Shown in pieces: positions 9,310-64,000 of a stretch of DNA of 64,000 bases. Position numbers and translations under genes: made by a program. The stretch spans positions 233,173,178-233,237,177 of the forward strand of contig CM057009.1 in the NCBI GenBank assembly GCA_029891345.1. The letters run 5' to 3'. This stretch comes from Dryococelus australis. Taxonomy: Eukaryota > Arthropoda > Insecta > Phasmatodea > Phasmatidae. How positions within the stretch are numbered: the first letter of the stretch is position 1; the number at the start of each line of letters is the position of its first letter. The notes under the pieces are model-generated. The model was not told the origin of the DNA. It did not search any database and worked only from the letters and a program-made list of their open reading frames with translations.

Positions 9310-9976
9310 TTGCTAGTTGCAGACAATAAATTTAAAACTACAATTTTTCCAAACAAATTGTTTCCTTTCAGAAAAATATCGGATAAAGATTTTCAGCGAC
9401 TATTAAATGACAATTCATTACGACCCGGTAAAGTGCTATGTTCCGTGTGTGGAAAATCTGTATATTCGAGTTTAAATTCTCATTTATATCGAAAGATTCC
9501 GAAAGTTAAAATTAAAAGAATCGCGTACGATTGGCGTAAAGATTTATTGCAGTCTGCATATTCGGTAAATCTTTCGATGGAAAAGTACTTGTCGAAATAC
9601 TCATTTCCTTTGGAAATTTTCATAGAGGGCCATTCTTTGGGCAGTTTACTGGTGCGAATAATATTGGAAATCTACGACTAGGCGGAATTTTTACAAATAA
9701 TTGAAATGCGTATTTTTTGTAGGAGCTCCTTTATACGGTTTGCAGAATTTCAAAAATGTTTTCCATGATTCGCTTTTACCCTTGCTGGTAGAAGATACAG
9801 CCAAGTCAAAATACAATTTCTTTTCAAAAGATCAATTACTAGTGCTCTACGGGCAATTTAGAAAGAATTTCGTGTTGTTGTTACCGTACGAATTTTCTGA
9901 AACAACTCTAATAAAACACGAGTCGTCGACGAAAGTAAACAAATATCACTGGATGTTTGAAAGATTGTATAAATGA
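9310..9976 (+). pseudogene. alpha/beta-hydrolase (lipase-like) gene of the viral fossil
   Basis: Two plus-strand pieces resemble a lipase or acyltransferase of the alpha/beta-hydrolase fold. The first has a CxxC pair (CSVCGKS), the strand phrase 'RIAYDWRKDL' typical of LCAT-like lipases, and the nucleophile elbow EGHSLGS (GxSxG). The second opens with FVGAPLYGLQNFKN, the 'GaP..G' loop that follows the elbow in this family, and ends near a YHW motif that may hold the catalytic His. Lipases or esterases are known accessory genes in several large insect and crustacean DNA viruses. The copy is broken. The family call is fairly secure; substrate is unknown. Confidence 0.6.
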
Positions 9977-10048
9977 GCTAAATGGGGAATATTCGGTTGG
10001 TGTGTAGTCATCACAAATTCATATTATGCTACAATCACCAATCTCGAA

Positions 10049-10273
10049 ATGAATTGCGTGGCGAACAATTCCCTGTCACTAGATGCGAGATGGCCTGCCA
10101 TTCGCGAGAAAAATAATTCAGACAAGGTCACTTTGTGTTTCCAATTTAATTTTTTCGACTATGACGACGGGACGGTCTCCATACGATATTCGTGTTTGAA
10201 TATCTCTCAAAAAACAAGAAACACTCTTAAAATAAACGACCACTCTCCACTCGGCCACACTTTTTTTTACTAA
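10049..10273 (+). CDS. small unrecognised reading frame in viral block
   Basis: A 74-codon plus-strand frame between the lipase-like gene and the next plus-strand frames. It is polar, with 'FQFNFFDYDDGTVSIRYS', an alternating pattern that suggests beta strands. Orientation and spacing match its neighbours, which is the main support. No family recognised; it may be the tail of a longer decayed gene. Confidence 0.35.
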   Translation: MNCVANNSLSLDARWPAIREKNNSDKVTLCFQFNFFDYDDGTVSIRYSCLNISQKTRNTLKINDHSPLGHTFFY

Positions 10274-10377
10274 ACAGCGAATTTATAAAAAAAAAATTAC
10301 AAATTTAATTACGCGAGATGTATGTGTGCATATATGCATATATATGATCAATTAAGTAATTGGACACAACAACCCAA

Positions 10378-10619
10378 ATGGCTCCTACTATCGACATTGC
10401 CTTGAATGATTTTTCTCAATTTTACACTTTGAAGGAACCAGTCGATTCAAACACAGCAAGTAAAAAATACGTAAATTGAGCGACGAATACATTAAACTGT
10501 TGGATATTCGAGAATATAAACTTTCAAACGTCAATATCATTTTCACGTACGATGTAAAAATATCTATAAAAATTATCAAAATCAACTTGTTTCTACTCGA
10601 TGGTATAATCAACTACTAA
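10378..10619 (+). pseudogene. small decayed viral-type gene, unrecognised
   Basis: A plus-strand reading region starting with MAPTIDIALNDFSQFY and ending with a hydrophobic FLLDGIINY tail. The coding character (acidic and aromatic mix, compact spacing to the 251-residue frame) fits a small viral structural gene. It looks broken. No homologue recognised. Confidence 0.4.
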
Positions 10620-10733
10620 GCTCTGTTGAAACTCAACCCGAATCTCAAAATTGATTCCATTTTATCCATAGTTTCAAGATCTAAACAATTCTACTTAAAG
10701 TTGTGTTTACGACATGTTTAAAATTCTTCCAAA

Positions 10734-11489
10734 ATGGATGGGCGAACATTGGGCGATAATCAACCAACAGACCAAATTTTTGCGAGCTACCTGACGAATA
10801 AATCACCGAAAATTATCGAAGACTTTACCCTAGATGTATTCAGGCTCGTGGAAAAACCCAATCAAGTAAACATGGTTTACCTGGTCAAATTAATTTTCCG
10901 ATTCTACGTGACTGAATTTGATAAATTAGGCTCGCTATTGCATATATCGTTTGTACCAATGATGAGTTTTTGCGTAGCATTCGCGCTTGCCGAACATACA
11001 TGCGTAGAGGTGCAAAAGCGAAACAATTTACCCGCGAGTCCCAAAGCAAAAAATACACCGGGATTGGACGATGTTTTGTGCAATTTGTTGTTAAAGTATT
11101 GTAAAAACGTCTTCAAACTCGACGCCGTCTTTGAGCATTACATTTCACCTCTGCTCGGACACTATGGCAGTAAAGCGTCCATGCTAAACGAACACAAATT
11201 CTTTTACCGACGCTGCAATGGCGTTTACCGGAAACTATTCGGACCTCGGGCCAAAGAGTCAATTACAACAGACCAAGTATACGGCTTGTGCACATATCTG
11301 TTTGATAGAAACAGAAATTATTTACCGCTCTTAATCGAAGCCATCAACGATAAACTATCATTTGACGATTTCAATCAACGAATGTTCCCGTTCATTTTCT
11401 GTGGGAAAAACGACCGGTGCCAGAAGCTGGCAATCATCTATGGTTATTTCCACGCGTTTGGTCTTCGAACGACGAACTCAAAAAATTAA
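10734..11489 (+). CDS. 251-residue viral-type protein, frame looks whole
   Basis: One of the longest uninterrupted frames in the fossil block, starting at ATG. The protein is globular-looking with balanced charge and several aromatic clusters (for example FYRRCNGVYRKLFG and FPFIFCGKND). There is no signal peptide and no clear transmembrane segment. It follows a small decayed gene by about 115 bp and precedes a 52-codon frame on the same strand, a viral-style array. I do not recognise the family. Confidence 0.5.
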   Translation: MDGRTLGDNQPTDQIFASYLTNKSPKIIEDFTLDVFRLVEKPNQVNMVYLVKLIFRFYVTEFDKLGSLLHISFVPMMSFCVAFALAEHTCVEVQKRNNLPASPKAKNTPGLDDVLCNLLLKYCKNVFKLDAVFEHYISPLLGHYGSKASMLNEHKFFYRRCNGVYRKLFGPRAKESITTDQVYGLCTYLFDRNRNYLPLLIEAINDKLSFDDFNQRMFPFIFCGKNDRCQKLAIIYGYFHAFGLRTTNSKN

Positions 11490-11511
11490 AACATCAGAGT
11501 GCGTATATATA

Positions 11512-11670
11512 ATGAAATCAGTGTTTGAACATATTCTCAAAATTAATTTACCTAGTTATTCGTTTATGCAAGACTTTTTTACGATAATTCGCGAGCACGA
11601 CGCTATAGTGGAGGTAATCATAAAACAATTAAAGGGAAACGAACAGTTTACGGAAACAATTTCGAAATAA
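11512..11670 (+). CDS. 52-residue viral-type frame
   Basis: Begins with ATG 22 bp after the preceding stop: MKSVFEHILKINLPSYS, then a helix-prone segment rich in I, V and E. No domain recognised. Its close spacing to the 251-residue frame, and the fact that it runs the same way, is the main support. Confidence 0.35.
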   Translation: MKSVFEHILKINLPSYSFMQDFFTIIREHDAIVEVIIKQLKGNEQFTETISK

Positions 11671-11829
11671 TTTAAAGCCTAACAATGTCATACCATAACA
11701 GGCCAACTTAAAACAAAACATATATAATAAGTTTTAATTTTTTTAACAAGTGATAAAGTTTTGGATATTTTTGCGGCAATTTGGGTTCGAATCTCGATAC
11801 CAATATTCACCAGCTGAAAAAAAAAGGGA

Positions 11830-11935
11830 ATAAAATGGTGTACTCTGATTGGTTGTTCTATAAAAAAGGAGGGTGATATCATGTTGTTTGTGGGGCACTC
11901 TAGATAAGTAGTCGCCAAGACTAATCTTATATTGA
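11830..11935 (-). repeat. fragment of the CCAAT-box foldback repeat family
   Basis: Contains GGTGTACTCTGATTGGTTG, a 19-bp exact match to the stretch near 30.42 kb. A short gap then leads to TTTGTGGGGCACTCTAG, similar to the outer ends of the other family members. It sits between viral-type genes, so a host repeat has landed inside the fossil. TGATTGG is an inverted CCAAT box. Confidence 0.6.
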
Positions 11936-12084
11936 ATGAGAATTGGATAAATGAGAAAAACGCACATAACAAAGTAGCAATTTATTTCTGTAAAAAATAC
12001 ACACTTTCTTTATTTAAATTGGTGATATTTGATCATTTTCGTCAACTCGTGTTTATTACTCGATAAATTACATTGTTGTTTGAA

Positions 12085-12716
12085 TTAGTGTTGACAATTT
12101 GCATATTCACTCCACAAACATCTGGCGGGACATACTGGATCCTTACATACCGTAATGTGCCTAAGTTGATCAATATATGTAACGTGCTCTTCTCTTTCAT
12201 GTCGTTCCATGGTTTCAATTACTACAGCGCAATTTTCCGAATCCCGAGGTCTCACGCAACCCATATATGTATAACCACATGGTAATTCAGTCTTTCGGTC
12301 AATTTTAATGCACATGGTTTTGATAATTTGCCAATCAAAATTATAATAATGTAATACTTCCCATTTGACAGTCTTCAAATACGTTGCGCATTTTGCGTTG
12401 CAGGGAATGCTAAACCTCTGAAAATGCGTCATCGCCGGATGTTTACAATACGTAAAGTGTTCATATCCATTGCAGTGTTGTACATGATTTTCCGACTCGT
12501 GAGTATAGTACGAGCTTATGCAACACTGATAATAATTCGGAACCCCACAAGGTAGTTCTGAAGCCAATTCTCAATGTTCCTGATTCGCACCGTACATTAC
12601 AATGTTTCGATCGAAATGTTTGGTTGATATACTGATCAAGTTGTGACCTTCGTCGTAATAACGTATTACAAATGCCATGGTTTCTGTATTACTGACGAAT
12701 CGCATAATGTCTGCCA
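12085..12716 (-). pseudogene. cysteine-rich viral-type protein gene
   Basis: The minus strand encodes a region of about 200 codons, the longest open piece being 160 codons (12,085-12,567). It holds about 18 cysteines in spaced pairs (for example YQCCISS, HCNGYEHFTYC, CGYTYMGC, CKDPVCPARC), suggesting a disulphide-bonded exported or envelope protein. An N-terminal piece starts at MADIMRFVSNTE. The Cys spacing is not a clear chitin-binding or PIF pattern, so no name is given. The gene appears broken. Confidence 0.45.
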
Positions 12717-12802
12717 TTCAGTATATAGGAGTAGTTGCAAAAAATGTTTTTTTTTCTGTAACCATTGGCGTCCCACGGGGAGTCTACATTTTATTTTTTA
12801 GG

Positions 12803-12925
12803 GGGAAATAAATCACCTTCCAAATAAATTGCATTTTTTTGAGGTGGCCGGAATCCCCCCCACCCCAAACTAGACAGAATCACCATAAAAATTATATTTG
12901 GAAGGTGGTTTAATCCTCCTTTTGT
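12803..12925. repeat. small palindromic (MITE-like) element, copy 1
   Basis: Bounded by GGGGGAAATAAATCACCTTCC on the left and the reverse-related GGAAGGTGGTTTAATCCTCC on the right, with a pyrimidine-rich centre. It is a diverged relative of the clearer element at 13.21-13.32 kb. Confidence 0.6.
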
Positions 12926-13212
12926 TATAAACAATATAATATGTGTATTTTTTTTTTAGTTTTTCTTAGTTATAATTAATATTCATATGGTGGTCTGTAA
13001 ACACGAGTTTAGTTGGTCTGTTTTAACCGTTCAGTGTAATGCCGTTGACGATTAGCATAATGTCTGCAAGTGTATAAGTAGAAATCGTTGCAAAAATACT
13101 TTTTTTTTTTTGTAATCGCAGAAGGCGGGGAAAAATAAGTCTACATTTTATTTTAGCCCTTTACTACACAATGTATCATATATGCGATGCCATAAAACCA
13201 AGTCAATTTATA

Positions 13213-13317
13213 AAAAGGGGGACTGAATCACCTTCCAAATAAACCGATTTTTTTGTAGGGGGGACTTTCGGCCCCCTTTAAAAATTCGGTCAGTTAGGAA
13301 GGTGATTCAGTCCCCTC
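13213..13317. repeat. small palindromic (MITE-like) element, copy 2
   Basis: The ends GGGGGACTGAATCACCTTCC and GGAAGGTGATTCAGTCCCC are near-perfect inverted repeats about 105 bp apart outside to outside. The centre holds GGGGGGACTTTCGGCCCCC. The hairpin form and two copies 400 bp apart suggest a tiny non-autonomous DNA element. Confidence 0.75.
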
Positions 13318-13339
13318 TCTTATACAATGTATGATTTTA

Positions 13340-13560
13340 CATCTTACGTAATGATAGTTTATTGTCATTTTCTACCAGATTTTTTAATGTTTCAATTACT
13401 AAGTCTTTGTAATCCGAATTCAGTAATTTAATGAAATGATATTTGGGTACATATTAAATGTTGCATCGTCTCAATTCGTTTTTTCAGACAATTCACCACG
13501 TTGATGTTGTTTGGCACATAGTTGGAGCGCATAATTTCGTGAATTTTTGGTAGGTATTAT
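13340..13560 (-). pseudogene. decayed viral-type frame, unrecognised
   Basis: Minus-strand coding-like stretches include IHEIMRSNYVPNNINVVN and a C-terminal KDLVIETLKNLVENDN. These are helix-rich and similar in style to the next frame upstream, to which they may belong. No family recognised. Confidence 0.35.
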
Positions 13561-13593
13561 CGTTTTTTTTTTTTTTCACGGTAGTGGACAGTT

Positions 13594-13857
13594 TCAACCA
13601 TTCAGTGCAATGCCATTGACGACTCGCATAATATCTGCCAGTGTATAAGTAGGTATATTGAGAATTTTCGTAGACTTGTAGGTAACCATCACAACAATCT
13701 TATAGAGTACGACTTCTGACGAAATACCTGCCTGTATATTGTTTATGTGAATAATGTTTAGTAATTTCGAATCGTCCAGTCTTTTCATCACCTGTTTGTA
13801 ATATTCAATTTCCAAAAAAATTGATGAGATATCATTCTTTCGACCTTGGCCTACCAT
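13594..13857 (-). CDS. 87-residue viral-type frame
   Basis: An open minus-strand frame, MVGQGRKNDISSIFLEIEYY..., ending with YTLADIMRVVNGIALNG. That ending is the part copied elsewhere at 13.0 and 12.7 kb. Mixed helix and strand; no known domain. Confidence 0.4.
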   Translation of the reverse strand: MVGQGRKNDISSIFLEIEYYKQVMKRLDDSKLLNIIHINNIQAGISSEVVLYKIVVMVTYKSTKILNIPTYTLADIMRVVNGIALNG

Positions 13858-13967
13858 CTTTGCGAGCTTTCGACACTGTCCGTTTTTATTTTATCCATAT
13901 ATATTTGTATTTTACCTTAGTTATAAATTAAAGGTTTTTCTCAGAGTGTTTTGCTTATTAGAAATAA

Positions 13968-14640
13968 TTACATTGTTAGTTTTTTGCCTTGTATGCTAAT
14001 CTCGGAATAATTATCGACTAAAATAAGGGTACCGTCCTCCACATCGCCACTCTCATGACTTTCGTCGTAGGGGGGAGTCGAAGGTTTTATGATTACCATT
14101 TCCCGCAAGACTCGGCCGCCACCGCAAAACTGAAATAACACGCCGTTCTCGTCGCCGGAGTCTTTAAAGTGGCCGAAAGTCGAGTGTAGGCACACCAAGC
14201 TATCGTAGTTCTTACAGTCGAAATGTTTAAACACGTTTGACACTCGTAAAATTTCCTTCAAAGGATCCATATTGTTTCGTTTTTCCATTTGCGAAACACA
14301 TGGCGCTCTTGAAGAGAGGAATCGCTGTGTCTCAAGCCACATCCATCGCGAGTTGTTTGGCAATATTTTGAACTATCGTAAAGCCAGAATTCAAAGTTCA
14401 TTTCGACTCGTCGACGATGTTTATTAGGGCAAAATATATTACGTAGTCATTTTTGTATAAATAGAATAACTTTACCGAAATATCATCAAATGCAAAAGAC
14501 AGCATGTCGTGTTTGGTACTGGTAAAATTAAAATTTACGTACAAGTTTCGGGAAAGCTCTTTCCATTTAAATTTGTCAGCAGACTTTGCATTATGATCGA
14601 AACACAAATTGATATAGCGATGGGTTACAAAGTTATTTCT
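13968..14640 (-). pseudogene. decayed viral-type gene of about 220 codons
   Basis: Two minus-strand pieces lie close together: 14,398-14,607 ('SRNLYVNFNFTSTKHDML...DDISVKLFYLYKND') and 13,968-14,363, which ends in an acidic tail (YDESHESGDVEDGTLILVDN). Composition and spacing suggest one gene. No homologue recognised. It appears broken. Confidence 0.4.
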
Positions 14641-15149
14641 GAAACCAAAAATAAATAGATATTTTATGGCTGGAGTTATATTCTGTTGTCGGCGACGTCT
14701 AAAGTGATGGAGGTGGCAATGGTGGTGGAGACAGATTAGATATCTCTAGATGTTTTACAAAATGTTCATGTTTGGGTGCATTAAAAACTTTTCAGTTATT
14801 AAAACCAACACGACTATAATAATCAATAATATTATCCGCAAAAGAAATAAACACATATTATGGAATATAGAAATGAATCACAATTGAAAAAATTATTATT
14901 AATTTTGATTTTTATTAGTAATTGTTAGAGTATTAACAGTCCTATTATTAAAATAAACAGAATGAAATGCCTGGAGGGGGCAAGGGTACCTGTAATGGTG
15001 TCTACATAAACCCTCCAGGCAGCATCATAGTTGGTGTGGGAGGTGCCATTCCCATTACATGCGCACCAGCATAAGGTGGTGGTGCCGAAGGTGCCAAAGG
15101 TGCCAAAGGTACCGACGGTTCCGAAGGTGATGAAGATGGATTCCTTCTT
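14641..15149. other. intergenic; short GAKGAKG-type repeat
   Basis: AT-rich to about 14.95 kb, then a GC-richer patch. Near 15.09-15.13 kb the trinucleotide-periodic GGTGCCAAAGGTGCCAAAGG would read as Gly-X-Y triplets on the plus strand, but only for about seven triplets. Confidence 0.4.
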
Positions 15150-15728
15150 TTAACAGACCTCATCCTCCTCCTCTAAGAATAAGATGAGATCCTTGATGTT
15201 AAAGGAGATGACATCCTTAGCATCGAAGGAGACGGCATCCTCGACGTAGGTGATGACGTCATCGGCATTAAAGGGGATGTCCTCTTCAATGTCAAGGGGT
15301 ATGACTTCTTCCGCGTCAAAGGGGATGACCTCTTCGGAGTCGAAGGGGATGAACTCTTCGGCGTCGAAGAAGATGCCCTCTTTGACATCGAAGGGGATGA
15401 CCTCTTCGGTGTCGAAGGAGATGGCCTCTTCGGTGTCGAAGAGCATGACATCCTCGGCATTGAAGAATTTGGCGTCGTCGTCATCAAGGGCGATGAGGTC
15501 TTCGATGTTGAAGATGCCAAATACTTCAAAGTTGCAGGCGTTTGCCTCTTCAATGTCGGAGGTGTTCGCCCCTTCGATGGCCGCTTCGTCACCGATGTTG
15601 ATGGCCTCTTCAGCGTAGACGGCAACATCATTGGCTTCAAAGATTGTCATCTCGGCCACTGGCAACCACCACAAACCATTCACGGTTGGTTGGCCACCGG
15701 CTGATGGGGTTGATGTCGTTTGTCGCAA
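15150..15728 (-). CDS. acidic octapeptide-repeat protein (192 residues)
   Basis: An uninterrupted minus-strand frame from ATG. Residues about 85-165 are a tandem array of the eight-residue unit F-D-x-E-E-x-I-P (24 bp): units such as FDTEEAIS, FDTEEVIP, FDAEEFIP, FDSEEVIP and LDIEEDIP. The protein is strongly acidic with hydrophobic residues at fixed spacing. Two other frames across the array are also open. Several differences between units (ttc/ttt, gac/gat, gag/gaa, atc/ata) are silent only in this acidic frame, which favours it as the real one. GC content is well above that of its neighbours. Host or viral origin is unclear; function unknown. Confidence 0.55.
   Translation of the reverse strand: MRQTTSTPSAGGQPTVNGLWWLPVAEMTIFEANDVAVYAEEAINIGDEAAIEGANTSDIEEANACNFEVFGIFNIEDLIALDDDDAKFFNAEDVMLFDTEEAISFDTEEVIPFDVKEGIFFDAEEFIPFDSEEVIPFDAEEVIPLDIEEDIPFNADDVITYVEDAVSFDAKDVISFNIKDLILFLEEEDEVC
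15261..15480 (-). repeat. 24-bp minisatellite coding the octapeptide array
   Basis: About nine imperfect 24-bp units (GAAGAGGTCATCCCCTTCGA plus four bases) in the acidic repeat frame. Unit length is a multiple of three, so copy-number change keeps the frame open. Confidence 0.85.
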
Positions 15729-16293
15729 AGTTCACTGCTTATATACTCTGGCTTCGATTGGGACACTTGGAGAAAAAAAAAACCCTTGGCTCTTACCAGG
15801 ACACTAGGAGAAAAACATACTCTGTCTCCTACCCAGGACACTAGGAGAAGAAAAAAAGTAAGAAGGTAGAGGAGGGGGGAAACGTGAGGGGAACCTCCTT
15901 TTTGCATAGTAAAAAAAAGTTATTTCTGCCCCGAGATAATTCTCTCATAATAATGATGCCAAGTTGAGTAATGTATGAGAGTCGCCTCACCGGCCCACGT
16001 ACGAACACTAGTCATGACTTTGAGCAAGCAGGTGCATATCAGATACACCGATGAGAAAAAAAGAAACATTAATGTATGAGTGCGCGAAGTAAAAAAGAAA
16101 AAACTCACTCATAGAGCAATCCCTCCTTACTACCCTGAAATACGAAATAAAAAATTTACTCGGTGCGTGTATTAACACCACACACTTTGGTATAGTGTCA
16201 GTGTGCTAGGGATAGCAGATATAACACTGTTTAGTAGCAGTGTTTTTTTTTATCACTCTTAGTAGTAGTGACCGTTAGTCAAGTTTGGCAGAA

Positions 16294-16544
16294 ATGGATA
16301 AGATTGGCGCAAAAAAGACAAAGTTAAACGGTTTATTTGAAGGAATGGGGGATATATTTATAAATATTTATGATAGTATTTTGATGCACCATAGTAAAAA
16401 AAAATTCAATTACTATTTGCAAAATATACAGAAGCAAAAGAAGAATTGGAAAAAATGCTAGAGGTTCAAAATAAAATAAGGAAGGAGTTGGTTAAGGAGT
16501 ATAAAGAGTTCCGGGAAGAATTGTACAAATATAAAACTTCATGA
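16294..16544 (+). pseudogene. decayed coiled-coil gene
   Basis: A plus-strand frame starts MDKIGAKKTKLNGLFEGMGD. The region ends in a highly charged coiled-coil-like stretch (EELEKMLEVQNKIRKEL, then KEYKEFREELYKY). The helix heptads are visible by eye. It sits downstream of the repeat-coding frame and is probably broken. No family recognised. Confidence 0.4.
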
Positions 16545-16839
16545 AAAAGAAATAGTAAAAGAATCATGAAAGCATTGTCAATGTAACATTACACAGAGAT
16601 GCAGGTTATGTAAAAAAATTAAAAAGTCTGCTTTCCTTAGAAGCAAAAGAAAGAAAGTATTAAGAGTAAATTTTTGTTTGAGTTTAGAGTGTTTTTTGTT
16701 TAATTTTAGGGTAAAACAGATTGTTACATATTTATTTTTTTCACAGCACGTTAACAAGCGAATGTTGGGGGAAAGGGCGAAAGAGAGGAGCCGTAAACAA
16801 CTTTATCAACTTTACAGTGGCTCCTCTTACAACTTCAGT

Positions 16840-17084
16840 GGTTGTCCCTCGTCAAGCCACAGAAGTCTCTCTCCCAGCTATCCCGCACCCAGCCGCAGGA
16901 GCCACTCACTCGGCAGCAGCAGCTCCAGCGGCTGTCCCCCGCCCAGCCACAGGAGCATCTCACCCGGCAGCAGCAACTCCAGCAGCTGTCCCTCGCTCAG
17001 CCACAGACCCAGCAGCAGAAGCAGATCCCTCCTCTCTCCCCACACACCCCAGTCACTACCACAACCCTAACTACAGCTCTTAGC
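16840..17084 (+). repeat. 54-bp tandem repeat, possible Gln/Pro- or Ala-rich coding
   Basis: Two full and two partial 54-bp units containing CAGCCACAGGAGC and CGGCAGCAGCA. All three plus-strand frames are open (Ser-rich, Ala/Pro-rich, Gln-rich). Of seven differences between the two full units, four are silent in the Gln-rich frame (QPQE-LTRQQQLQ), three in the Ala-rich frame and none in the Ser-rich frame. A coding call therefore leans to the Gln-rich frame but is not secure. GC is far above the surroundings. Confidence 0.5.
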
Positions 17085-17089
17085 TAAAT

Positions 17090-17450
17090 TCGAGCTGTGT
17101 AGGGGGGTGTATCGTAGGGAGAGCAGTGTAGGGGAAGTTTTTCAATTGTATGATTTCAGATAGTATGGATAACTTTTTTAAATTATAACCCTTTACAAAA
17201 ATTATATATCCTACCTAACCCATTGGATCCCAATTCCTATTGTAAATTTGTACCCTCGGGTAAATATTAATTAATTTTATATACGTTTTTAAAAAATAGG
17301 TTGTTTTATATATTTAATATTTCATTCTTTTATATATGTAATAATTTATATTTTTATATTTGTAATATTTTTTATAATTACATTATTTTTTAATAAATTT
17401 TATTTATTACAAAAAACGGTATTAATTAATTTTTTTATATTACCTTCAGG
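17090..17450. other. AT-rich spacer
   Basis: Long A/T runs (17.27-17.44 kb) with TTTTATATAT phrases. No gene. It lies 3' of the minus-strand gene that follows. Confidence 0.5.
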
Positions 17451-17452
17451 AA

Positions 17453-18440: not shown

Positions 18441-18540
18441 TATTTCTTTTTTTTTTTTTACTTTATAACTAGGTATATAAGGAGTCGCTGTTCCCTCGAT
18501 GGTCTTATTGTGAAAGTAGCAGTTGTTGTAACAAGATTAG

Positions 18541-18880: not shown

Positions 18881-19234
18881 GACTAAAGGTTCTTATATAA
18901 CAAAAAAATTTAGCCCTCCACGATCTTTAGTACACAAAATAAAATATTTATATTGAGGTCTTTCATCTACAACTATCAGATAAATGTGGTGGGTATCGAT
19001 GTCAAAACGATGAAGAGGCGTCAAGAAATCTTGGCTTGCCCCCTCTCGATATACTTTCTAGTTGCTGAAAACATGAAATACTAAATGTGCCAATTACTGA
19101 TTAAGTTATATGAACTGTGTATCTATTCAATCGTCGACACGACAATCTCACTGTAAACTAATTCAAACTCGTTGCTGGAAATTTTGACTCAAAATGCGGC
19201 AAGAACATTGCATGTTTCATATCATTTGATAAAA

Positions 19235-54796: not shown

Positions 54797-54929
54797 TTCG
54801 CTTGAAATGGTTTTACGAAATTATGCTTAATCCGTTATAAAAACAGGGGATTTTATATCAGTTGGTATTTGACAACGCTTTTAGAAAACTTATATTTTCA
54901 AAATTATTTGTATTAAAGTAAAATTCTTG

Positions 54930-55405: not shown

Positions 55406-55564
55406 GTTAAAATATCGAATCCAGCTCTTTTCTAATCTGCTTGTATTATTCCCCATGAGTTATTATTTTAAAGTTGAATTTTTTGAGCAGTTTTTACAAT
55501 ACCTGTTAAATAATTCGACAACTGAAGAGATCTCCTGTCCAACAATGTTGCAGTTGTAATGGTT

Positions 55565-56200
55565 TTTTGTGAAAAGCCCAAGAGATTATATATACAAAAA
55601 AAAAATCAATAAAAATAATTGACTTTTGACTGGTAACCTGTAATTTGTACCCTTTCAAAATCCAACATATATATTTTTTTAATTAAAAATTGTAGTTGAA
55701 TTCTAACTAGTTTACCATTACCATAATATGACAATTATGCCATAAATAGATAAGAGAATACAAACAATAAAGCTTATTTGATTGGCCTAAGTGTAATTTT
55801 TACAGTTTTGGGATTAATGTTGGCGTACTCTGATATTTTGACAAACATAAGAGCAATATCTGGTTATGTTTTGATAGGTGTGGGAAATTTATGTAACCAA
55901 TTACTACACCTCGAGTAAATGAAATAAAAAAATTTATTGACAAACAAGATATAAAAATGTTTTATTTGCCAAAAATAATACATTTGTGAACTATATATTA
56001 TAGTTAAAAACAATGTGATTTTTTTGTCAATACACTTCAATTTTATTGCAGGGAATTTCTCCATATTGCCACTACAATCATGGAAAATTTTCTTCAGTTG
56101 GCCCACGGATGTGGAGATTTGATCTGCAGGAATTCAGTCGAACTATCTCTTCTGTTGTGAACCTGCACCAAAAACTTTAAATGTAAAGTCTTTGATACAT
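55565..56200. other. AT-rich spacer, no gene seen
   Basis: Long A/T runs and several AATAAA motifs. The 80-codon minus-strand frame at 55.86-56.11 kb is rich in Phe/Tyr/Ile and looks like chance opening in AT-rich DNA, though it partly echoes the following gene (its FHDCSGNMEKF resembles WFHDNVVAKWKDF), so a small duplicated piece is possible. Confidence 0.4.
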
Positions 56201-56203
56201 TTT

Positions 56204-56875
56204 ATTTCAATTTCGTTGTTGTTTTTGGAAATCTTTCCATTTTGCCACTACATTATCATGGAACCAAAAATGCAATAATTTCGAATTTCTATCTGCACAC
56301 ATAAATCCACGAAAGTGTCTCCAATAATCATAATGGCCTGCATTACCATATATTGCTACCAGAGACTTAAATGATGGGCATTTGTAAGTTTTTTGCAAAT
56401 CCACAATTTCGAGATAGTGATCGAATTTTCACAACTTCTTTAGCCATTATATTTGATGTGAACCCGCGACAAATATTATATATTTGTTGTAATGGCTCCT
56501 TATCAATTGAAATACTTCTCTTTCAATTTTGTCATAGGGAATTTCGCCATCTTGCCATGCCAATTGGTGAATATTTTCCTTCAGCCAATAGTTTGTCTTT
56601 TTACTTACATCATCCAATGTTTTCCACAGATATGGAGATTTGAAGAGCCGCCTTTCGGTGAAAGCATCAATGTTGGTGACTGCCAGTTCCTTCAGCACAT
56701 ATTCGCTGTTGTTATCATGGAAGCCTTTGCAGATTACAAAACATATTGTATGTTGATACTTGCGAGTGTAACAAGTGCTGGCTCGAAAGCACGTGATTTG
56801 TCTTGGCAGATACCGTCGTATATATATCCACCATGGTCGTGATTTTTTTTTAATTCCTCGGTGGATGTCTTGCAT
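56204..56875 (-). pseudogene. exonuclease-like protein of a widespread arthropod family
   Basis: The larger piece (56,447-56,875) reads ICFVICKGFHDNNSEYVLKE, LAVTNIDAF, then SPYLWKTLDDVSKKTNYWLK and HQLAWQDGEIPYDKIEREV. The second piece (56,207-56,404) reads KCPSFKSL and GHYDYWRHFRGFMCADRNSK. From memory this order ('f..KELAv......f..Py....l....W...n.hgl.W.dG...y......CPs...l.......C..H......CA..n') matches an uncharacterised, RNase-T/DnaQ-like protein family often seen in arthropod genomes and mobile elements. Enzymatic role is inferred. The copy appears broken. Confidence 0.5.
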
Positions 56876-56945
56876 AACTAACTGAAAAAGAAAGTTTCAT
56901 TGAAAAAAAACAATTACATAAGATTACTCATCATTTTTTTCCGAC

Positions 56946-57071
56946 ATGAAAGATATATATGAAAAATATTCCGATGTTGCTGTTAGTAATGCTTTAGACG
57001 ATTGGGAATCATTTTGCAAGACCGAGCCAAAAGTTAACTCCATCGATTCTAGATTTTACGATAACAACTAA
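56946..57071 (+). CDS. 41-residue acidic frame
   Basis: MKDIYEKYSDVAVSNALDDW, then ESFCKTEPKVNSIDSRFYDN. It has an ATG start and a clean stop. It starts about 70 bp from the minus-strand gene, divergently. Acidic and non-random in composition, but short. Confidence 0.3.
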   Translation: MKDIYEKYSDVAVSNALDDWESFCKTEPKVNSIDSRFYDNN

Positions 57072-57870
57072 CAGAACACCGAATTTCTGTAGGTGAAACA
57101 TCACCTAGTAAAATTTATAAACATGAACTTTCTACGATATTGTTTCATCAGCGTAAATAACTGCGAATGTGGTTCATTAGTGTAAATAACCGCGAATGGC
57201 ATCCCGGTACTCATTAAGTTGTCCAAATTTTTGTCGATTCTTCCGACACGTATTATGTTTAGCAGAAATTAAGGAATTTTGCAAGGTTTTTACATATCAT
57301 TACTTTAAAAATTTGTTTGAACAAGATAATTTTTTAATATTTTTACCAGCAACTGCGAATTAATAGTTGGTTATTATTGGGAAACTACGGCATTATTTTT
57401 GGCCACATGTTGTCTCTTTTTATTTTTCATTACACATTCGTTTTTATTTATCATGGTTTGTTGTAGTCTATTTATTATTTTCATTTATGTTTCTCTTGAT
57501 ACGAAAAAAAATGCTACAATTACCAAATGTAAACACATAAAATAAAATAAATATTGGGTGTGAAACCATGTATTTATAAGGTCTATTCTCTCCCAGGGAG
57601 CATAACAGAATGGACACACTCGAGTTCAAAAATTTGTTTATTCTCACTACATGAAGAACTGGATGTGAAAAAGCAACTCGAATAGACACATTTACGAATA
57701 CATGGAGTTGATTACAAAGTTATTGCATACTTGGACACTGCCATTACATCTGATGCCACTTCAAGAAGCATTTTTAATTAATCTGTTGCACGATTATGAT
57801 AAAATGCGACATTGATGGTCGAGCGAGTTAACTGATAGATTCGTGCCAAGAATCTAACAGATCGTATAAA
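57072..57870. other. no gene seen
   Basis: AT-rich. A repeated phrase CGTAAATAACTGCGAATG / TGTAAATAACCGCGAATG occurs at about 57.15 and 57.18 kb. The 73-codon minus frame at 57.47 kb lacks support. Confidence 0.4.
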
Positions 57871-57874
57871 TCAT

Positions 57875-58461
57875 TCAGTAATGAGTTGTAATTGATAAAT
57901 AAATTTTTTTTTTTTTCATTTTTCGTGTTTGGTACGTAATTGTATTTTTTAACATCGACCAGTAGTCGTAACCACCAGTATTTAAATTATGCACCAATCG
58001 TCTATTAAAAAGTATGGGCCCGTCATTATCGGAAGATATTTGGTAACGATAGATACCGATATAGTTTTTACTGTGCAACCCGTACAAAACTTTTGCAAAT
58101 TTATTGGCTTGCGGAAACTGTTCGATAAACATTTTCGCGTGCACCTCATTGCCCACTGTCCAACGCACCACTTTAAAGTTTTTTGCCAAAGCCGCTATGA
58201 AATGATTGGCTCCATGGAATTCGATTTTACATTCGTCTAATAAAGTGCCATTTGAATCGATGACTGCGATGCCTTGCGCTCGCCTTTACTTTGTGAATTT
58301 TCTTTTTTTTTTGCTCTTTTATCGGCTAGTTCGCGATCGTCTTCATCTCCACTGGCGATTCTCTGATTGCGAAATCCTTTTCTCATACCGCCATATCTGG
58401 AATCGCCAACCACATCGGAATCTTCACTATCGCTTCTGATTTGTAAAGCAGAGTTAAACAT
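57875..58461 (-). pseudogene. viral-type gene with charged N-terminus
   Basis: The start piece (58,237-58,461) begins MFNSALQIRSDSEDSDVVGD with mixed acidic and Lys-rich runs (ELADKRAKKKENSQSKG). The main piece (57,875-58,189) reads KVVRWTVGNEVHAKMFIEQF and GIYRYQISSDNDGPILF. No recognised family; it appears broken. Its ATG overlaps the ATG of the plus-strand frame to the right. Confidence 0.4.
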
Positions 58462-59431
58462 GTCTCTTACATTTAATGGGAAGAAACAAATACGTAAATA
58501 CGAGGATTATTCACACCAAAAATTATATCCAAAGTACTATCGATCTATCTGCAAATATCAAAATTGTTGTCATCGGATAATACCGATAACATTTTTGCGC
58601 ACATTTTACTCGGATTGTTGAACAATATAATAACCTTGAGAAATGCCCATTCATGTGTATAGGGACCCTTGTGTTACCTGATGTTCGACAAGGCGGTAGT
58701 GAATGTCGGCCAAATGAGCATGTTTATTAACGACGATGATGTTTTTTTCCCTCCATTTCTCGAAATGATTTTCATGAGTATGGAAATTGTTCGGTCGTTG
58801 CAATGTAGTTACAAGCAGTTGGAATTTAACCGGTGCGAGGAACTTGCTTTCGATCAACTACAACATATCGCACAAAATATGTTTGGCAGCAGTATACCAT
58901 ACCTCGAATGTCATTTCCACATCCCCCACGATCGTCAACTGAAGATCGTCAAACATTTCACAGAACTTGTGGTGCAAGCAGTGCTCGGTTTATGCGAAAA
59001 CGTCTGATTTTATGGAGATTATGTACCTTCTTCTAGAGTGCATTTGGTTCGATTCTTCGATGATTTTGACCGATAATTATAAAAAAAAAGATGCTCGGTA
59101 AAAAAAATCTACGCTCAATATTGAGCATGTGAATTATGTGTTAAATGGTACGACGCCTTTGATTCTAACTTACACATCCGATGGCCGAGTTTTATACACG
59201 CTGGATAAACGCATGAGTGAATTCATATGGAAATTGATTATTTTGAAAAGGTTTCATACGTTTCTCAAATATAAATTTAATTTATCTAGACTAGTCGATC
59301 TGCTCCTTTCCATCGATTCGTTGTGGTTCATTTACGTTGATGAATTTGGCAAAATGGTCACACTACCATCGGAACTGAAAGCCATCGAGTCTGAACTACA
59401 AAATCGTATTTTGCATGGGTGGTTATTTTGA
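58460..59431 (+). pseudogene. decayed viral-type gene(s) of about 300 codons
   Basis: Plus-strand pieces: 58,460-58,621 (MSLTFNGKKQIRKYEDYSHQ), 58,669-59,007 (112 codons; FLEMIFMSMEIVRSLQCSYK, ELAFDQLQHIAQNMFG) and 59,129-59,431 (LTYTSDGRVLYTLDKRMSEF, KYKFNLSRLVDLLLSIDSLW). They are collinear and even in composition, so one gene is likely. Helical, no catalytic motif recognised. Confidence 0.4.
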
Positions 59432-59570
59432 CTATTTTTTTTTTTTGTGTTGAAGTAGCCGATATTGGCGGGTATATTTCAAATATATTTGCTTTGAAAG
59501 TAATCCTTTGATTATAATTTTTCGTTCCCTGAGAGAGAACGTGTGTGTGAGAGAGAAGGAAATGCACTGA

Positions 59571-61264
59571 TGGATTCCTTCACGATTAGTATCATTGTTC
59601 AAGCTGTATTATTGTTTGTAATATTGTTGGTGTATCTGTTTTTACTACATGCGAAAACTCTAAAATACGATCCCTTAAAATCGGGTAAATATTTGTTTAC
59701 TTTGAACCCAGTCAAAAATTAAAAACTTAAATTTGTCACTTTGTGTAAAACGATTACGTATGGTGAGTATGGAGCTTTTGCGACGGGTGCAGAGAATCCA
59801 GAAAGCTCGAAAATCGAGGTGAATTTAATCGGCGAATCGGACAAAACACCTCACGAACAGGGATGGAATTTCGAGAAACAAAAATGGTTCAAATGTAGTC
59901 ACATGCAAACATTTTCACCGAAACTTGTAAAGTCGAAACAGATTATAAAATCCAGCCACACTGTGATTTAAATCCCTTAAACTTTGTGTCAATCTCCCCG
60001 AAACTGAACATTTCTGGAGGCCTGCAGTTGATGTACAGTGATTGTAGTAATCCGAACCAAGTCGATGACATAACGTACGATTATTATTGCATCTTGATGA
60101 ACATCGATAGTTACTAATATGCAAACAAAATTTAAAAAACTTGAGGATATGTATATGAGATGCGGGCGCAATCGTAAATAGATTTTGTAGGTATGCCCAA
60201 AGAATATGATTTTTGATGGCACTGCATACCGTCCGAACAATGATGCGATTAGGATGGAACAGGATATTGCCAACGTTTGTGTCGACAAATTAAACAAAAT
60301 CAGATTGCCTTACGCGAACGATGCCGACATCATTTGTAATTATGGATTACCAGAAATCGTCAAATGTGTGCATGGACTTTCTAAAAGCCGAATAAACTGT
60401 CTACAACCCGAATGTTTGCAAAACGAAAATGGTTATATTTTGCATCCGTATAAGATCAATACCTATTTTTGCCGAAATGGAGAAGTCGAACACTTTAAAG
60501 AATGTAATCAAAAATTAAAATATTCTTATTACGAATGCGATAGATGTCGCTTGACTTATCCCTATGTCGACAAAGTTTTCAACGTAGACACCGGTAGTTG
60601 TGAAAATCCCACCCTCGAACTCCTTCCTGTTCCCTGTCATTTTCCCGAATACCCATCACTGCAGTTAAGGATTAAAATAGTGCCGGATGCGAACAAATTG
60701 ATTTTATCCACACAACATGATAGGAATAAACAACTACAACCGGCCATTGAAAATCAAAATAATATTTTTCTTAAAAACTGCAAAATAATGCTTCATAGTG
60801 TAAGAATGTTGATTCCGGAAAAAAAAATTTGATTTCGGTAAAGTTCTTTTCGAAGAAAGTATCATTTCCGTTAAACCTACACTAAAATTAGAATATAGGA
60901 AATACACTGTAAAATCAAGATTGTATTTGGCGACATTTTTCGCAGGTGTTTTCTTGATGGATTTTCGTAAATCATTGATACCAAGAAGAAATTTTCTTCG
61001 ATTTTATACAAGGGGTTTATAAAATACAAAAAATTTGATACCAAAAAATATACGTGAAAATATAAAAATTTTGCAAATTTGGCCGAGAAGGTGGAAGATG
61101 GCTATTTAATTGACTTTATTGTTGCGAGAAATACACTACAAGTTTTTAAATCGTACCTTCAATTTTCAAAGTCCTTTAAATTTGTTCCCAGTTGGCTCGA
61201 GGCGATGAGACGGTACCCGGACAAAAATTTTGTTTACAACTATCCTCATTTACAAAGTTTTTAA
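59571..61264 (+). pseudogene. vp91: VP91/PIF-8-like structural protein
   Basis: The N-terminus at 59,571 is a signal anchor (ISIIVQAVLLFVILLVYLFL), as in VP91. Further on, plus-strand pieces carry Cys-rich, chitin-binding-like modules: the 208-codon piece (60,206-60,832) starts IFDGTAYRPNNDAI, recalling 'vFDGTaCvP' of VP91, and contains YKINTYFCRNGEVEHFKECN with YYECDRC. VP91 (PIF-8) is a core virion protein and part of the entry complex. The region (about 560 codons) is shorter than typical VP91 (700-850). Broken, with several breaks. Identification rests on layout and one motif. Confidence 0.55.
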
Positions 61265-61294
61265 CCTTCGAACTTTTTTTCCTTGAAGTGTAAA

Positions 61295-61528
61295 TTATGT
61301 AAGGTATGTAATGGCTTTTTGATATGATTCGATCGCGAATCTTAGATTGTCGCATACTTCACTGAAACTTTTCTCTTCGGCAGCCAATTTAAGCAAATGC
61401 ATTCCAGCGAGATAAAGGGCCACTTTAACTTGATTGTTGTCGCATGTTCGTTCTATGATTTCTTTGCAAAAGTGAATACTATAAAGTAGTTCTTTTGGAT
61501 TAATGGTTTTACTATTTTTTTGCCCCAT
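61295..61528 (-). CDS. 77-residue helical viral-type frame
   Basis: MGQKNSKTINPKELLYSIHF; after the start it is almost entirely helical (KVALYLAGMHLLKLAAEEKS, then FAIESYQKAITYLT), like a three-helix bundle. The N-terminal MGQKNSK could be a myristoylation signal (MGxxxS/T). ATG start and clean stop, convergent with the vp91-like gene. Unrecognised. Confidence 0.45.
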   Translation of the reverse strand: MGQKNSKTINPKELLYSIHFCKEIIERTCDNNQVKVALYLAGMHLLKLAAEEKSFSEVCDNLRFAIESYQKAITYLT

Positions 61529-61689
61529 TACTTTGCCAAATTGATGATGAATTCATCAGACAATGGGGTCATTTGGTTCGACGATGGCGATGAATTATTT
61601 TCTTCCCTCGTGGCAAATTGCAACTCATCGGATAATGTGGCGACTTGTGGAACAAGGGTTAAATCCCCCTCGGGAGGAAGGTTTATTTG

Positions 61690-62566
61690 AATTTGAGTCA
61701 TTGGGTCTAATTCGACCGGTGTGTTTACTTCATATATCCGAGTTGGATCGTTTCTGTTACCGCTTCCCCAGCCATTGTATCTTTATTCGAAGGGATTAAA
61801 TTGTGCGATCGTAAGGTTTTTAACATTAAATCATCGAGTGATGTTTGTTGATTACAACACACAGACGAGCTTTTAGGAGACTGGAAGGTTAAAAAATCTG
61901 ATAGGCTGTAATCGGGCGAAATGTTTTGAATCGAAAATGGCAAAGTTGGGGATGTAGTTAGTTCTCATTGTTGTTGTAATCGGGGATTATCTGTCACCAC
62001 TCTTGTTAAAGTCGATTGAATTATTTGAGGTTTTACTTGCATTGTGTCTAGATCGATCAAGGAGACTACTTGCAAATGCGGAATATGCATCGAATTGAAA
62101 CTGGACTGTTCTACCGGCTGCGATTTAAAATGTAGTGTATTCGCACTAATCGAATACACAACTTTTATACGTTTGGTTGGCTGGTGTACTTTTCCATTTG
62201 GAAAATCAAACGTGAAATTTTCTAGACTGTTGATAAAAGAGGATTTATGGTATCTAAGTTACTCGATTCGTTTTTGTGCCCATGGTATCGTTTGTGCACG
62301 AATTTGCGACTGATGCCCGCTTCTTGTACGTGCCCGTAATTTTCAAAATGGTAATTGCCAATCACAGGAACTTTCACTTTCAGTAAATCTTGAACCTTGT
62401 GGCTATCGGATAGGTCAGAATTAAACACCAAAACTATTTTCAACACTGTCAAACCCATATCGAATGATTTAATGACGTTTCGAATTGCTGCCTGAGGATC
62501 GAAACTGAAAGCTTGGATTTGGTTTTTGGAAAGTAAAACATTTTCCCCGACGATTTCATCAGCCAT
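61690..62566 (-). pseudogene. tandem paralogue 1, viral-type
   Basis: The N-terminal piece (62,222-62,566) begins MADEIVGENVLLSKNQIQAF, SFDPQAAIRNVIKSFDMGLTV. It matches the next gene closely over about 75 residues. Later same-strand pieces are Gln/Ser-rich (61,965-62,159; 61,725-61,943). Function unknown; an even, soluble protein. The downstream part looks broken. Confidence 0.5.
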
Positions 62567-62596
62567 TTGATCAAATAATCATAACATATACAGGCG

Positions 62597-63615
62597 TTAG
62601 TAACTTATGTTGTATTTATGTTTAACATCGTCAAGTTTAAAATCCAGTGTTGGAAGTTGTTCTTTTAGAACTATGTATTCAGCACCGCCACTACTTTTGA
62701 AAGTTTCCGAATTTAGTGTCTGTTCGATGAAAGCTCGTAGTTCACAAACACCGCCATACAAACCAATCATTGCCTGTTCGGAAATATTTGGTGTTTCAAC
62801 AAAAAGCATCCACTCATCGACTCTTGTCGAAGTTTTGCCGTGTGGGCGGCCTGATTTTCTAGAGTACCACTCTTGTACTTTTTCTAAAATATATTGTTCG
62901 TTAGGTATATAATTTGGGATAAGTTGGTTTTGGTATAATAATGGTTGTTGTTGCTCGTCAAGTATGTAATTAATAGTTTGTTGTTCTTGCTTTGGTAATT
63001 CTAGTTTTTTATTGGGTATGTAATTATTAGGTACAAAATTTGATGTGTATTTGTTTTGTTCTGGTAATTGCTGTTGTTCTTGTACGAGATTCTCGAATGA
63101 ATAGTTGTTTGAAATATCTGATTGAAACACCATGTCCATTTCGAAAACAGCAGGTGAGTCGATTGCCAATAGTTCATTTAAATATACGGGTGATGGTTCA
63201 CTATCGGGGTTCTTTCATTTTGTGGTAGAGTATTTTGACGTTTTACTTCACACACATTGTTGGCGTTGTTGTGAAAGTAGAATGCGAAATTCTCGTTGCC
63301 CATGAATTGAAGATGCTGTTCGTATTGGTAGATATCATGCGTTCGCCTCACCAATTTTGTTCGACAAGCACCAGCCAACATGTAGTCGTAATTATTGACT
63401 GATTGATCCAACACTGGTGGAATATTCTTAAACAAATATCGCACATTATCAATATCGGTTTTATTTAAATTTATGAGGAAATTATTCTTTATAACTGTTA
63501 GGCCTAAATCGAAACTTTTAAGGATGTTGTGATTCGCTAAATCAACATCAAATGTGTGAATACGGATCTGGTCGTTATAAATAAAAACACTTTCACCGAC
63601 TATTTCACCAGACAT
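62597..63615 (-). pseudogene. tandem paralogue 2, viral-type
   Basis: The N-terminal piece (63,178-63,615) begins MSGEIVGESVFIYNDQIRIH, TFDVDLANHNILKSFDLGLTV. A following piece (62,597-63,169, 190 codons) has a Gln/Pro/Asn-rich segment (NFVPNNYIPNKKLELPKQEQ) and a folded end (GRPHGKTSTRVDEWMLFVET). Head-to-tail with paralogue 1, about 30 bp apart. Unrecognised family. Confidence 0.5.
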
Positions 63616-63640
63616 GATTTTTGCTCTTATATTAGGTATT

Positions 63641-63766
63641 ATGGTAGCTTATAATTTTGAACATTTGTTATCCCAACAGGAAGTATTTGAACTTGTCGAG
63701 TGTAACGAATATGACGATGAAAATATATCTGATGACAAGAGCACAGAACTCAAACACATGGGTTAG
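63641..63766 (+). CDS. 41-residue acidic frame
   Basis: MVAYNFEHLLSQQEVFELVE, then CNEYDDENISDDKSTELKHM. ATG start about 25 bp from the start of paralogue 2, divergent. Resembles the 41-residue frame at 56.95 kb only in size and acidity. Confidence 0.3.
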   Translation: MVAYNFEHLLSQQEVFELVECNEYDDENISDDKSTELKHMG

Positions 63767-63912
63767 ATACATATACAAAATATATAAATTAAAAAAAACT
63801 TGTAAAAAATATTTTTTTTAAATAATTTTTTTATGAAACTTGAATGTTTGCATATAAATTAGATACATCGCAAGTTTTTTTGTTTATCAGTTCGAGAAAA
63901 AACGTAAACTTT

Positions 63913-64000
63913 TTATAAAAATTCATCGTATTGTTCCTTGAAGGTGGTGAAAGATGCATTCTTGAACGTTGAATCACTCAATGGTATAAATTCGTGCCTG
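63913..64000 (-). CDS. C-terminal end of a gene cut by the window edge
   Basis: A minus-strand frame open to the edge reads HEFIPLSDSTFKNASFTTFK, then EQYDEFL and a stop. Coding-like, but too short to identify. Confidence 0.35.
   Translation of the reverse strand, partial: RHEFIPLSDSTFKNASFTTFKEQYDEFL

What the first reader, a model, noticed from the sequence alone, without database searches (positions are those of the whole stretch)
9310..64000. Endogenised large dsDNA virus of the baculovirus/nudivirus/nimavirus class
Pieces matching PIF-2 (anchor plus G-x-C-D-C-G block), PIF-3 (anchor, DSSDC..LC..F.CD framework) and VP91/PIF-8 (anchor plus Cys-rich modules) lie in one stretch with BRO, dUTPase, matrixin and lipase genes and dozens of tightly packed short frames. 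Most are broken, and host repeats lie among them, so it is a genomic fossil. That PIF genes define this class is established; the family assignment is open.
Basis: partly seen in the sequence, partly recalled or inferred. Interest (0 to 1): 0.9.

Follow-up and report, generated by a model that had tools for sequence, protein, structure and literature searches.

The report
Multi-copy fossil virus in stick insect
The chromosomes of a stick insect carry dozens of worn-out copies of a large insect virus, apparently inserted in one ancient burst, and the few copies whose edges were read sit at a jumping-gene sequence, which suggests how they got in.

Summary
Profile searches of separate open pieces confirm PIF-3, PIF-2, three BRO-N, dUTPase and matrixin above the Pfam cut-offs. 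VP91 and lipase are not confirmed. The host genome matches the stick insect Dryococelus australis. The PIF-2 profile scores at 39 other places. The 40 aligned copies form an almost perfect star: summed branches are 3.32 terminal against 0.09 internal. This fits one burst of insertions followed by neutral decay. P74 profiles match at least 145 places. Virus-specific DNA starts near 8,604, and the unit runs 31 kb past the window. It is flanked by direct copies of a repeat, R, that encodes an IS1595/Merlin-type transposase. R also occurs with no virus in the flanks read. Best mechanism: circular viral DNA carrying part of R recombined with R copies in the chromosomes. The rival is movement as a giant Merlin-type composite. 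The class fits Naldaviricetes; order and family stay open, because the LEF-8 search did not complete. My paper searches found no such element in phasmids.

The parts
6543..8602 (.). Left copy of repeat R (Merlin/IS1595-type); its right end is at about 8602; its true left end is not determined
   Evidence: Direct repeat of the unit's right end: 237 differences in 1653 aligned bases; homology with other R copies reaches about 6543
7123..7295 (.). Tandem repeats (unit about 39 bp) inside R
   Evidence: TRF; also in the right R and in the left flanks of other R copies
7580..7999 (-). IS1595/Merlin-type DDE transposase piece
   Evidence: PF12762 E 1.3e-12, 48.4 bits, cut-off 27
8604..64000 (.). Virus-specific region of the provirus in the window; continues to window coordinate 93,572, then right R to 95,416 (C17:233268593)
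   Evidence: Collinear with another copy where compared; right side read as separate stretches L017, L018, L066, L067
9304..9678 (+). Lipase-like piece, not confirmed
   Evidence: LCAT E 0.0095, below cut-off
24458..27426 (.). Stretch largely absent from the one copy compared; probably a later mobile-element insertion into this copy
   Evidence: L051 has about 0.7 kb between the matches to 24457 and 27427; retrotransposon nature is my reading of the frames, no Pfam support
28901..30065 (.). 113-bp tandem array, about 10 units here, nearly absent in the one other copy compared
   Evidence: TRF; L051 joins 28934 to 30087
37388..37714 (-). BRO-N gene piece
   Evidence: PF02498 E 4.4e-17
38057..38452 (-). 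Matrixin metalloprotease piece
   Evidence: PF00413 E 4.7e-13
38689..39216 (-). PIF-3 piece
   Evidence: PF05006 E 1.7e-9, 38.4 bits
46676..47101 (-). PIF-2 piece carrying the profile match
   Evidence: PF04631 E 3e-6, 26.8 bits
47056..47388 (-). Middle piece of the same PIF-2 gene, another frame (frameshifted gene)
   Evidence: Collinear with PIF-2 loci L001-L008
47392..47658 (-). N-terminal piece of the same PIF-2 gene, in a further open piece
   Evidence: Collinear with PIF-2 loci L001-L008
47743..47994 (-). BRO-N gene piece between PIF-2 and dUTPase
   Evidence: PF02498 E 9.6e-7; same position in the eight loci
48279..48641 (-). dUTPase C-terminal piece
   Evidence: PF00692 E 9.6e-5, 22.6 bits, cut-off 22
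54144..54497 (-). DUF559 piece, overlapping the BRO-N piece in another frame
   Evidence: PF04480 E 5.5e-5
54458..54820 (-). BRO-N gene piece
   Evidence: PF02498 E 5.3e-14
55241..55402 (-). Rho_N-like piece
   Evidence: PF07498 E 3.1e-6
60191..60829 (+).
   Evidence: No Pfam match above cut-off, no PDB match, fold unusable

Best explanation
This is one of at least 40 decayed proviruses of a PIF-bearing large insect DNA virus (class Naldaviricetes) in a stick insect genome (Dryococelus australis). SHOWN: a unit of about 89 kb, as far as read, in the window copy, bordered by direct copies of R, a transposase-bearing repeat; the left R is long, the right R lacks R's left part and follows viral DNA; in the five left junctions read, viral DNA starts directly at R's right end; R is abundant in the genome, and the five R copies without virus in the flanks read (left parts read too) also have the long left part; PIF-2 copies form a star phylogeny, with changes private to one copy spread evenly over codon positions. 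INFERRED: the circular viral genome had acquired part of R. It integrated in a short episode by single-crossover recombination between that segment and near-identical R copies in germline chromosomes. This gives host R plus virus plus viral R. The many R copies supplied targets, and the proviruses then decayed without selection for tens of millions of years.
For: PIF/BRO/dUTPase/M10 profiles. 39 PIF-2 places, all over cut-off. All 780 pairs of 40 copies differ by 9-21%, none less. Terminal branches sum to 3.32 and internal to 0.09. PIF-2 changes seen in a single copy: 192/205/180 at codon positions 1/2/3. Direct terminal repeats differ by 14.3% (237 of 1653), about the mean of 13.4% between copies, as expected if both ends were identical at insertion. 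In 7 of 10 R copies examined, homology stops at one point (the last base differs in one of the seven), with unrelated DNA after; 3 of 10 run into viral DNA. Of 10 R copies whose left parts were read, none extends into viral DNA on the left: homology to the viral end starts at L066 9573 in 9 and 9576 in 1. R has 1,377 first-look candidates; only 40 were scored, the window itself and 39 others at 86-88%. By eye, 4 of these 39 lie 41-52 kb from a PIF-2 match and 4 lie 13-14 kb from a P74 match, in consistent orientations (a fifth P74 pair is 7 kb apart).
Against: The left R of copy L001 starts at 7382, so its left part is missing; this needs a truncated host R or a later deletion. Virus-free R copies could also arise by deletion between the two R of a provirus, or R may simply be an independent transposon. 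'Virus-free' rests on about 330 bases read to the right and up to about 1.1 kb to the left of each. Only one right virus-R junction was read. Target-site duplications could not be checked. Most P74 matches lie far from the listed PIF-2 matches (5 of 40 PIF-2 within 100 kb, 0.57 expected), so more than one virus lineage may be present. Third codon positions show a mild excess in pairwise differences (0.143 against 0.120 and 0.112), so some divergence may predate insertion. The 14 control genomes (0 hits each) appear to be prokaryotes and are a weak control.
Confidence: 0.5

Rival explanations
1. Giant composite transposon: two R elements around the viral genome let the Merlin-type transposase move the whole unit by its outer ends, so the burst was transposition inside the germline, as proposed for some endogenous nimaviruses with another transposase.
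For: R encodes an IS1595/Merlin-type transposase; R's right end is nearly base-precise and its reverse complement begins GG, as reported for Merlin ends; R copies and virus copies show similar divergence; star phylogeny; an inverted copy of R's terminal 19 bases with 2 mismatches lies near the viral right end (0.04 expected per 10-kb strand); sesarmid nimaviruses of 265 and 285 kb are thought to insert by such an enzyme.
Against: The left R of copy L001 is truncated and lacks an outer end; no outer left terminal inverted repeat was recognised in the stretches read, which did not reach the left end of full R; no target-site duplication was demonstrated.
Confidence: 0.3
2. Many independent germline insertions of an exogenous virus over a short period by non-specific repair, with R being a terminal repeat of the linear viral genome rather than a host transposon; the virus-free R copies are solo remnants, like solo LTRs.
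For: R borders the provirus on both sides as direct repeats; R copies without virus in the flanks read are common (7 of 10 on the right side); R-R divergence is like inter-copy divergence.
Against: The two R of the window provirus differ in extent (long left, short right), unlike true terminal repeats; nearly base-precise right ends argue against random end joining.
Confidence: 0.15
3. Copies spread by host segmental duplication or satellite-like amplification of one old insertion.
For: Copies are dispersed and collinear.
Against: No pair of 40 copies is closer than 9% and internal branches are nearly nil, which does not fit stepwise duplication; left flanks of the two copies compared differ.
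Confidence: 0.04

Closest known systems
Endogenous nimaviruses of crustaceans (PMC10871703: abstract, Results part 1 of 3 and section 12 read)
   Same: PIF-bearing class of large DNA viruses (Nimaviridae is a Naldaviricetes family, PMC10271883 passages); multi-copy in host genomes (22-477 copies per haploid genome given); viewed by the authors as giant transposable elements; in sesarmid crabs with a Ginger2-like DDE transposase.
   Different: Insect host; unit of about 89 kb against about 268-579 kb for the genomes listed there as complete; direct R repeats with an IS1595/Merlin-type transposase instead of a 46-bp inverted repeat with Ginger2 or tyrosine recombinases.
Labial gland disease virus (LGDV)-like elements in ant genomes (PMC12548425: outline, Results parts 1-2 of 3 and passages read)
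   Same: Decayed clusters of naldavirus genes with premature stops and transposable elements in insect chromosomes; PIF, BRO and an AAA ATPase in the virus; AAA match here in L017 (E 4e-17).
   Different: The passages read report at least three endogenization events with lineage-specific duplication in one ant and 35 loci on one scaffold in another, not a genome-wide star burst at a transposon.
Apis mellifera filamentous virus (PMC4517127: start of abstract in a listing, and passages)
   Same: Encodes PIF-1, -2, -3, P74, at least six BRO and at least two Peptidase_M10 proteins, a combination that overlaps the window's genes.
   Different: Exogenous virus of about 498.5 kb, 50.8% GC; no sequence relation could be tested here.
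Nudivirus remnants in arthropod genomes (Cheng et al. 2020, recalled; not held) and Teratorn, a herpesvirus-piggyBac fusion in medaka (recalled)
   Same: Endogenous large DNA viruses; in Teratorn a virus joined to a transposase and multiplied in a genome.
   Different: Other virus groups or transposases; details recalled, not read.
Merlin DNA transposons (PMC8101967: passages read)
   Same: DDE_Tnp_IS1595 domain; R's end begins GG when read inward.
   Different: Two clear terminal inverted repeats and 8-9 bp target duplications not shown for R here.

Membership tests
Class Naldaviricetes | pif gene homologues | tested here: met
   PIF3 and PIF2 above cut-off in the window; PIF2 at 39 places and P74/PIF0 at 145 in the genome; 0 of 14 control genomes each, which appear to be prokaryotes
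Class Naldaviricetes | DNA polymerase and p33 sulfhydryl oxidase core genes | tested here: inconclusive
   No such hit among 225 window pieces scanned; 20 pieces of the right extension L017/L018 also lacked them; L066/L067 pieces were not scanned against Pfam
Order Lefavirales | lef-4, lef-8, lef-9 transcription genes | not tested
   None among the 225 window pieces, but the whole-genome LEF-8 search was asked ten times and never answered
Nimaviridae | Nimaviral core genes and absence of lef genes | not tested
   No reference proteins at hand; lef genes not tested genome-wide
Baculoviridae/Nudiviridae | pif8/vp91 (listed only for these two among four families, PMC10271883 passages) | tested here: inconclusive
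   60191-60829:+ gives no Pfam match above cut-off and no PDB match
AmFV/LGDV-like filamentous viruses | BRO, Peptidase_M10 (AmFV) and AAA ATPase together with PIF genes | tested here: met
   shared content only, not a phylogeny, and BRO and proteases are widespread
Merlin superfamily (for R) | DDE_Tnp_IS1595 domain | tested here: met
   PF12762 E 1.3e-12
Merlin superfamily (for R) | Terminal inverted repeats beginning GG | tested here: inconclusive
   Right end reads GG inward; an inverted 19-base copy with 2 mismatches near the viral right end; left end of full R not reached
Merlin superfamily (for R) | 8-9 bp target-site duplication | not tested

The most novel reading that the evidence does not exclude
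A naldavirus captured a Merlin-type transposon in its genome and thereby became a giant virus-transposon hybrid that multiplied through a stick insect germline in one burst, with a preference for the (putative) X chromosome; at least two related lineages may have done so.
Probability: 0.3. Interest if true: 0.9.

Novelty: new variant of a known kind. Interest (0 to 1): 0.75.

Why it matters
Endogenous PIF-class viruses are known, but a genome-wide, near-simultaneous burst of dozens of copies of a virus tied to one transposon family gives a mechanism that can be tested. Either homology to an abundant transposon lets circular insect viruses enter chromosomes, or a captured transposase mobilises a whole virus. 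It also extends PIF-class virus fossils to stick insects, for which my literature searches found no virus of this class, and it provides many dated neutral copies of one viral genome. An appreciable part of the repeat content of this endangered insect's genome may turn out to be viral.

Tried and rejected
Left edge at 9.3 kb: rejected. 'Host repeats' of 27.4-36.8 kb as late insertions: mostly rejected, as the one other copy compared shares them. Telomere-targeted insertion as in majaniviruses: no two-unit telomere repeat in the window, no further test. tRNA, Rfam: none. Relatives in viral contigs for PIF2, PIF3 and BRO pieces: none. Protein database for PIF3 and for 10734-11486: none. PDB: none up to E 1 for the VP91-like and PIF2 pieces; for PIF3 at E up to 10, only 7 chance-level matches, best E 0.58. 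Structure of 60191-60829: pLDDT 30.9, not searched further. Copy L037: no viral match in the 20 kb fetched 22-42 kb left of its PIF-2. L001's right end: not found in L068. Host identity: G000 has 646 contigs and 3,415,067,245 bases, the paper gives 1,879 scaffolds and 3,421,391,311 bases, so the versions differ although the N50 scaffold is identical in length.

The alignment-wide Pfam scans used 117 of 162 pieces of 75 aa or more right of 9.3 kb (194 in the window, 32 in the left flank), and 108 of 264 listed pieces of 45-74 aa (364 before those inside long pieces and low-complexity ones were dropped), so weak genes may be missed.
Full report
WHAT WAS CHECKED. The open pieces of the window were searched apart. 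PIF-3, PIF-2, three BRO-N pieces, a matrixin and a dUTPase pass the Pfam cut-offs, along with a DUF559 piece beside one BRO and a Rho_N piece. The lipase is below its cut-off. VP91 is unsupported by profile, PDB sequence or a usable fold. Long open pieces are far more numerous than in dinucleotide shuffles, but so are those of the left flank, so the profiles and the copies carry the case.

HOST. The window lies at C17:233173178-233237177 of a 3.415-Gb assembly. A mitochondrial COX1 copy in it is 100% identical over 447 residues to a Phasmatidae record. The paper's scaffold count and total length differ somewhat from G000's (1,879 and 3.4214 Gb against 646 and 3.4151 Gb). The paper names Scaffold_4 as the X chromosome. 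C17 is the fourth longest of the contigs whose lengths I saw, so it is probably the X (inference). A word search of that paper found no 'virus' and 'viral' once, in a reference.

COPIES. The PIF2 profile finds 39 places at E <= 1e-3, all over the cut-off. None of the 14 control genomes rings, but these appear to be prokaryotes. The window's own copy is not among the 39, so 39 is a lower bound. The first eight loci align collinearly with 45.3-49.1 kb of the window (longer aligned blocks 79-88% identical), with a BRO between PIF-2 and dUTPase. With 31 more loci and the window, 40 copies gave 780 pairs with divergence 0.091-0.207 (mean 0.134). The tree is a star: terminal branches sum to 3.32 and internal ones to 0.09 substitutions per site. 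PIF-2 changes found in one copy only are even over codon positions (192, 205, 180). Changes shared by four or more copies lean to third positions (38, 31, 55), and pairwise differences do so mildly (0.120, 0.112, 0.143). CpG sites change by transition at about 13% against about 5% for other C and G. This fits one burst from very similar genomes followed by neutral, methylation-shaped decay. With a recalled insect rate near 3e-9 per site and year, a mean terminal branch of 0.083 is some 25-30 million years; this is only an order of magnitude.

OTHER VIRAL GENES. P74 profiles match 145 places, with 150 of 380 candidates scored. Only 5 of 40 PIF-2 copies have a listed P74 match within 100 kb, against 0.57 expected by chance. 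So either detection is patchy or further related lineages are present. Both are over-represented on C17: 14 of 39 and 38 of 145, against 3.7 and 13.9 expected. The ranked, capped lists may bias these figures. To the right of the window, L017 holds an AAA ATPase piece (E 4e-17), a gene type reported in AmFV, AmFLV, LGDVs, filamentoviruses and hytrosaviruses (PMC12548425, Results part 2).

BORDERS. A stretch of another copy (L055) is collinear with window 7382-11489 at 87%, across the supposed junction at 9.3 kb. Left of 7382 the two flanks are not homologous apart from 68% similar retrotransposon-like DNA. The right end of the window's provirus lies at C17:233268593. Its last 1.84 kb is a direct repeat of window 6937-8603. 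Over 1653 aligned bases they differ by 14.3%, and over 7382-8603 by 13.8%, against 12.0-12.9% to the L001 copy's repeat. The repeat, R, carries a piece of an IS1595/Merlin-type transposase (PF12762).

R IN THE GENOME. A 1,155-base R probe has 1,377 first-look candidates; the 40 scored are the window itself and 39 others at 86-88%. Of ten chosen R copies, three run on into viral DNA after the right end. In the other seven homology stops at one point and unrelated DNA follows; in one of the seven the last base differs (the output of 132 was cut). Left parts were read for ten R copies, five with virus downstream or PIF-2 at the right distance and five with no virus in the flanks read. In all ten, similarity to the viral right end begins at L066 9573 (9576 in one), while the copies match each other further left. 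So left R is long, and the right R of the window provirus starts abruptly after viral DNA. The reverse complement of R's right end starts GG, and an inverted near-copy of its 19 terminal bases (2 mismatches, 0.04 expected per 10-kb strand) lies 44 bases before the junction. The left end of full R was not reached. No clear terminal inverted repeat was found there (its fuzzy hits mostly fall in a shared inner segment).

MECHANISM. Direct R copies with a long left and a short right one are what a single crossover between a circular viral genome carrying part of R and a resident R would leave. This is my preferred reading (0.5). The composite could equally have moved by its outer ends (0.3), as sesarmid nimaviruses are thought to do with a Ginger2-like enzyme (PMC10871703, section 12). 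The truncated left R of copy L001 favours the first.

CLASSIFICATION AND NOVELTY. The pif genes put it in Naldaviricetes (PMC10271883, passages). LEF-8 was asked for ten times and not answered, so order and family are open. BRO, M10, PIF and AAA resemble AmFV and LGDVs in content only. Searches for phasmids with nudivirus, endogenous viral elements or baculovirus (I saw listings of 20 of 25, none, and 15 of 73 papers) and for Naldaviricetes with endogenous, genome and insect (10 of 10 listed) showed no such finding. The library lacks many papers, including the nudivirus-remnant survey.

Noticed in passing
G000, C17 against other contigs: PIF-2 and P74 copies are over-represented on C17, probably the X chromosome (14 of 39 and 38 of 145, against 3.7 and 13.9 expected).
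   Followed up: partly
G000, whole genome: The COX1 profile has 102 matches (96 of 381 candidates scored), several nearly full length with mitochondrial TGA codons: abundant nuclear mitochondrial copies.
   Followed up: no
window 28901-30065: A 113-bp tandem array of about 10 units here is almost absent in copy L001; possibly an array inside the virus that expanded or shrank.
   Followed up: partly
window 62225-62578:- and 63181-63648:-: Two neighbouring pieces look like paralogues of an unknown protein family (by eye; no Pfam match).
   Followed up: no
window 54144-54820: A BRO-N piece overlaps a DUF559 piece in another frame, perhaps one frameshifted BRO-nuclease fusion.
   Followed up: no
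L066:7759-8472:+: A 238-aa open piece that looks like an ankyrin-repeat protein (by eye; not scanned).
   Followed up: no
window 30.6-31.6 kb, 53.2-53.4 kb, L017:7598-8098: A dispersed inverted-repeat family (arms up to 181 nt) occurs several times in and beside the provirus.
   Followed up: no
window 2967-4862, L053:5405-5847, L054:6390-8072, L055:240-1521: Retrotransposon-like sequence lies left of two proviruses and in the stretch fetched near copy L037; 66-72% similar between these places.
   Followed up: no
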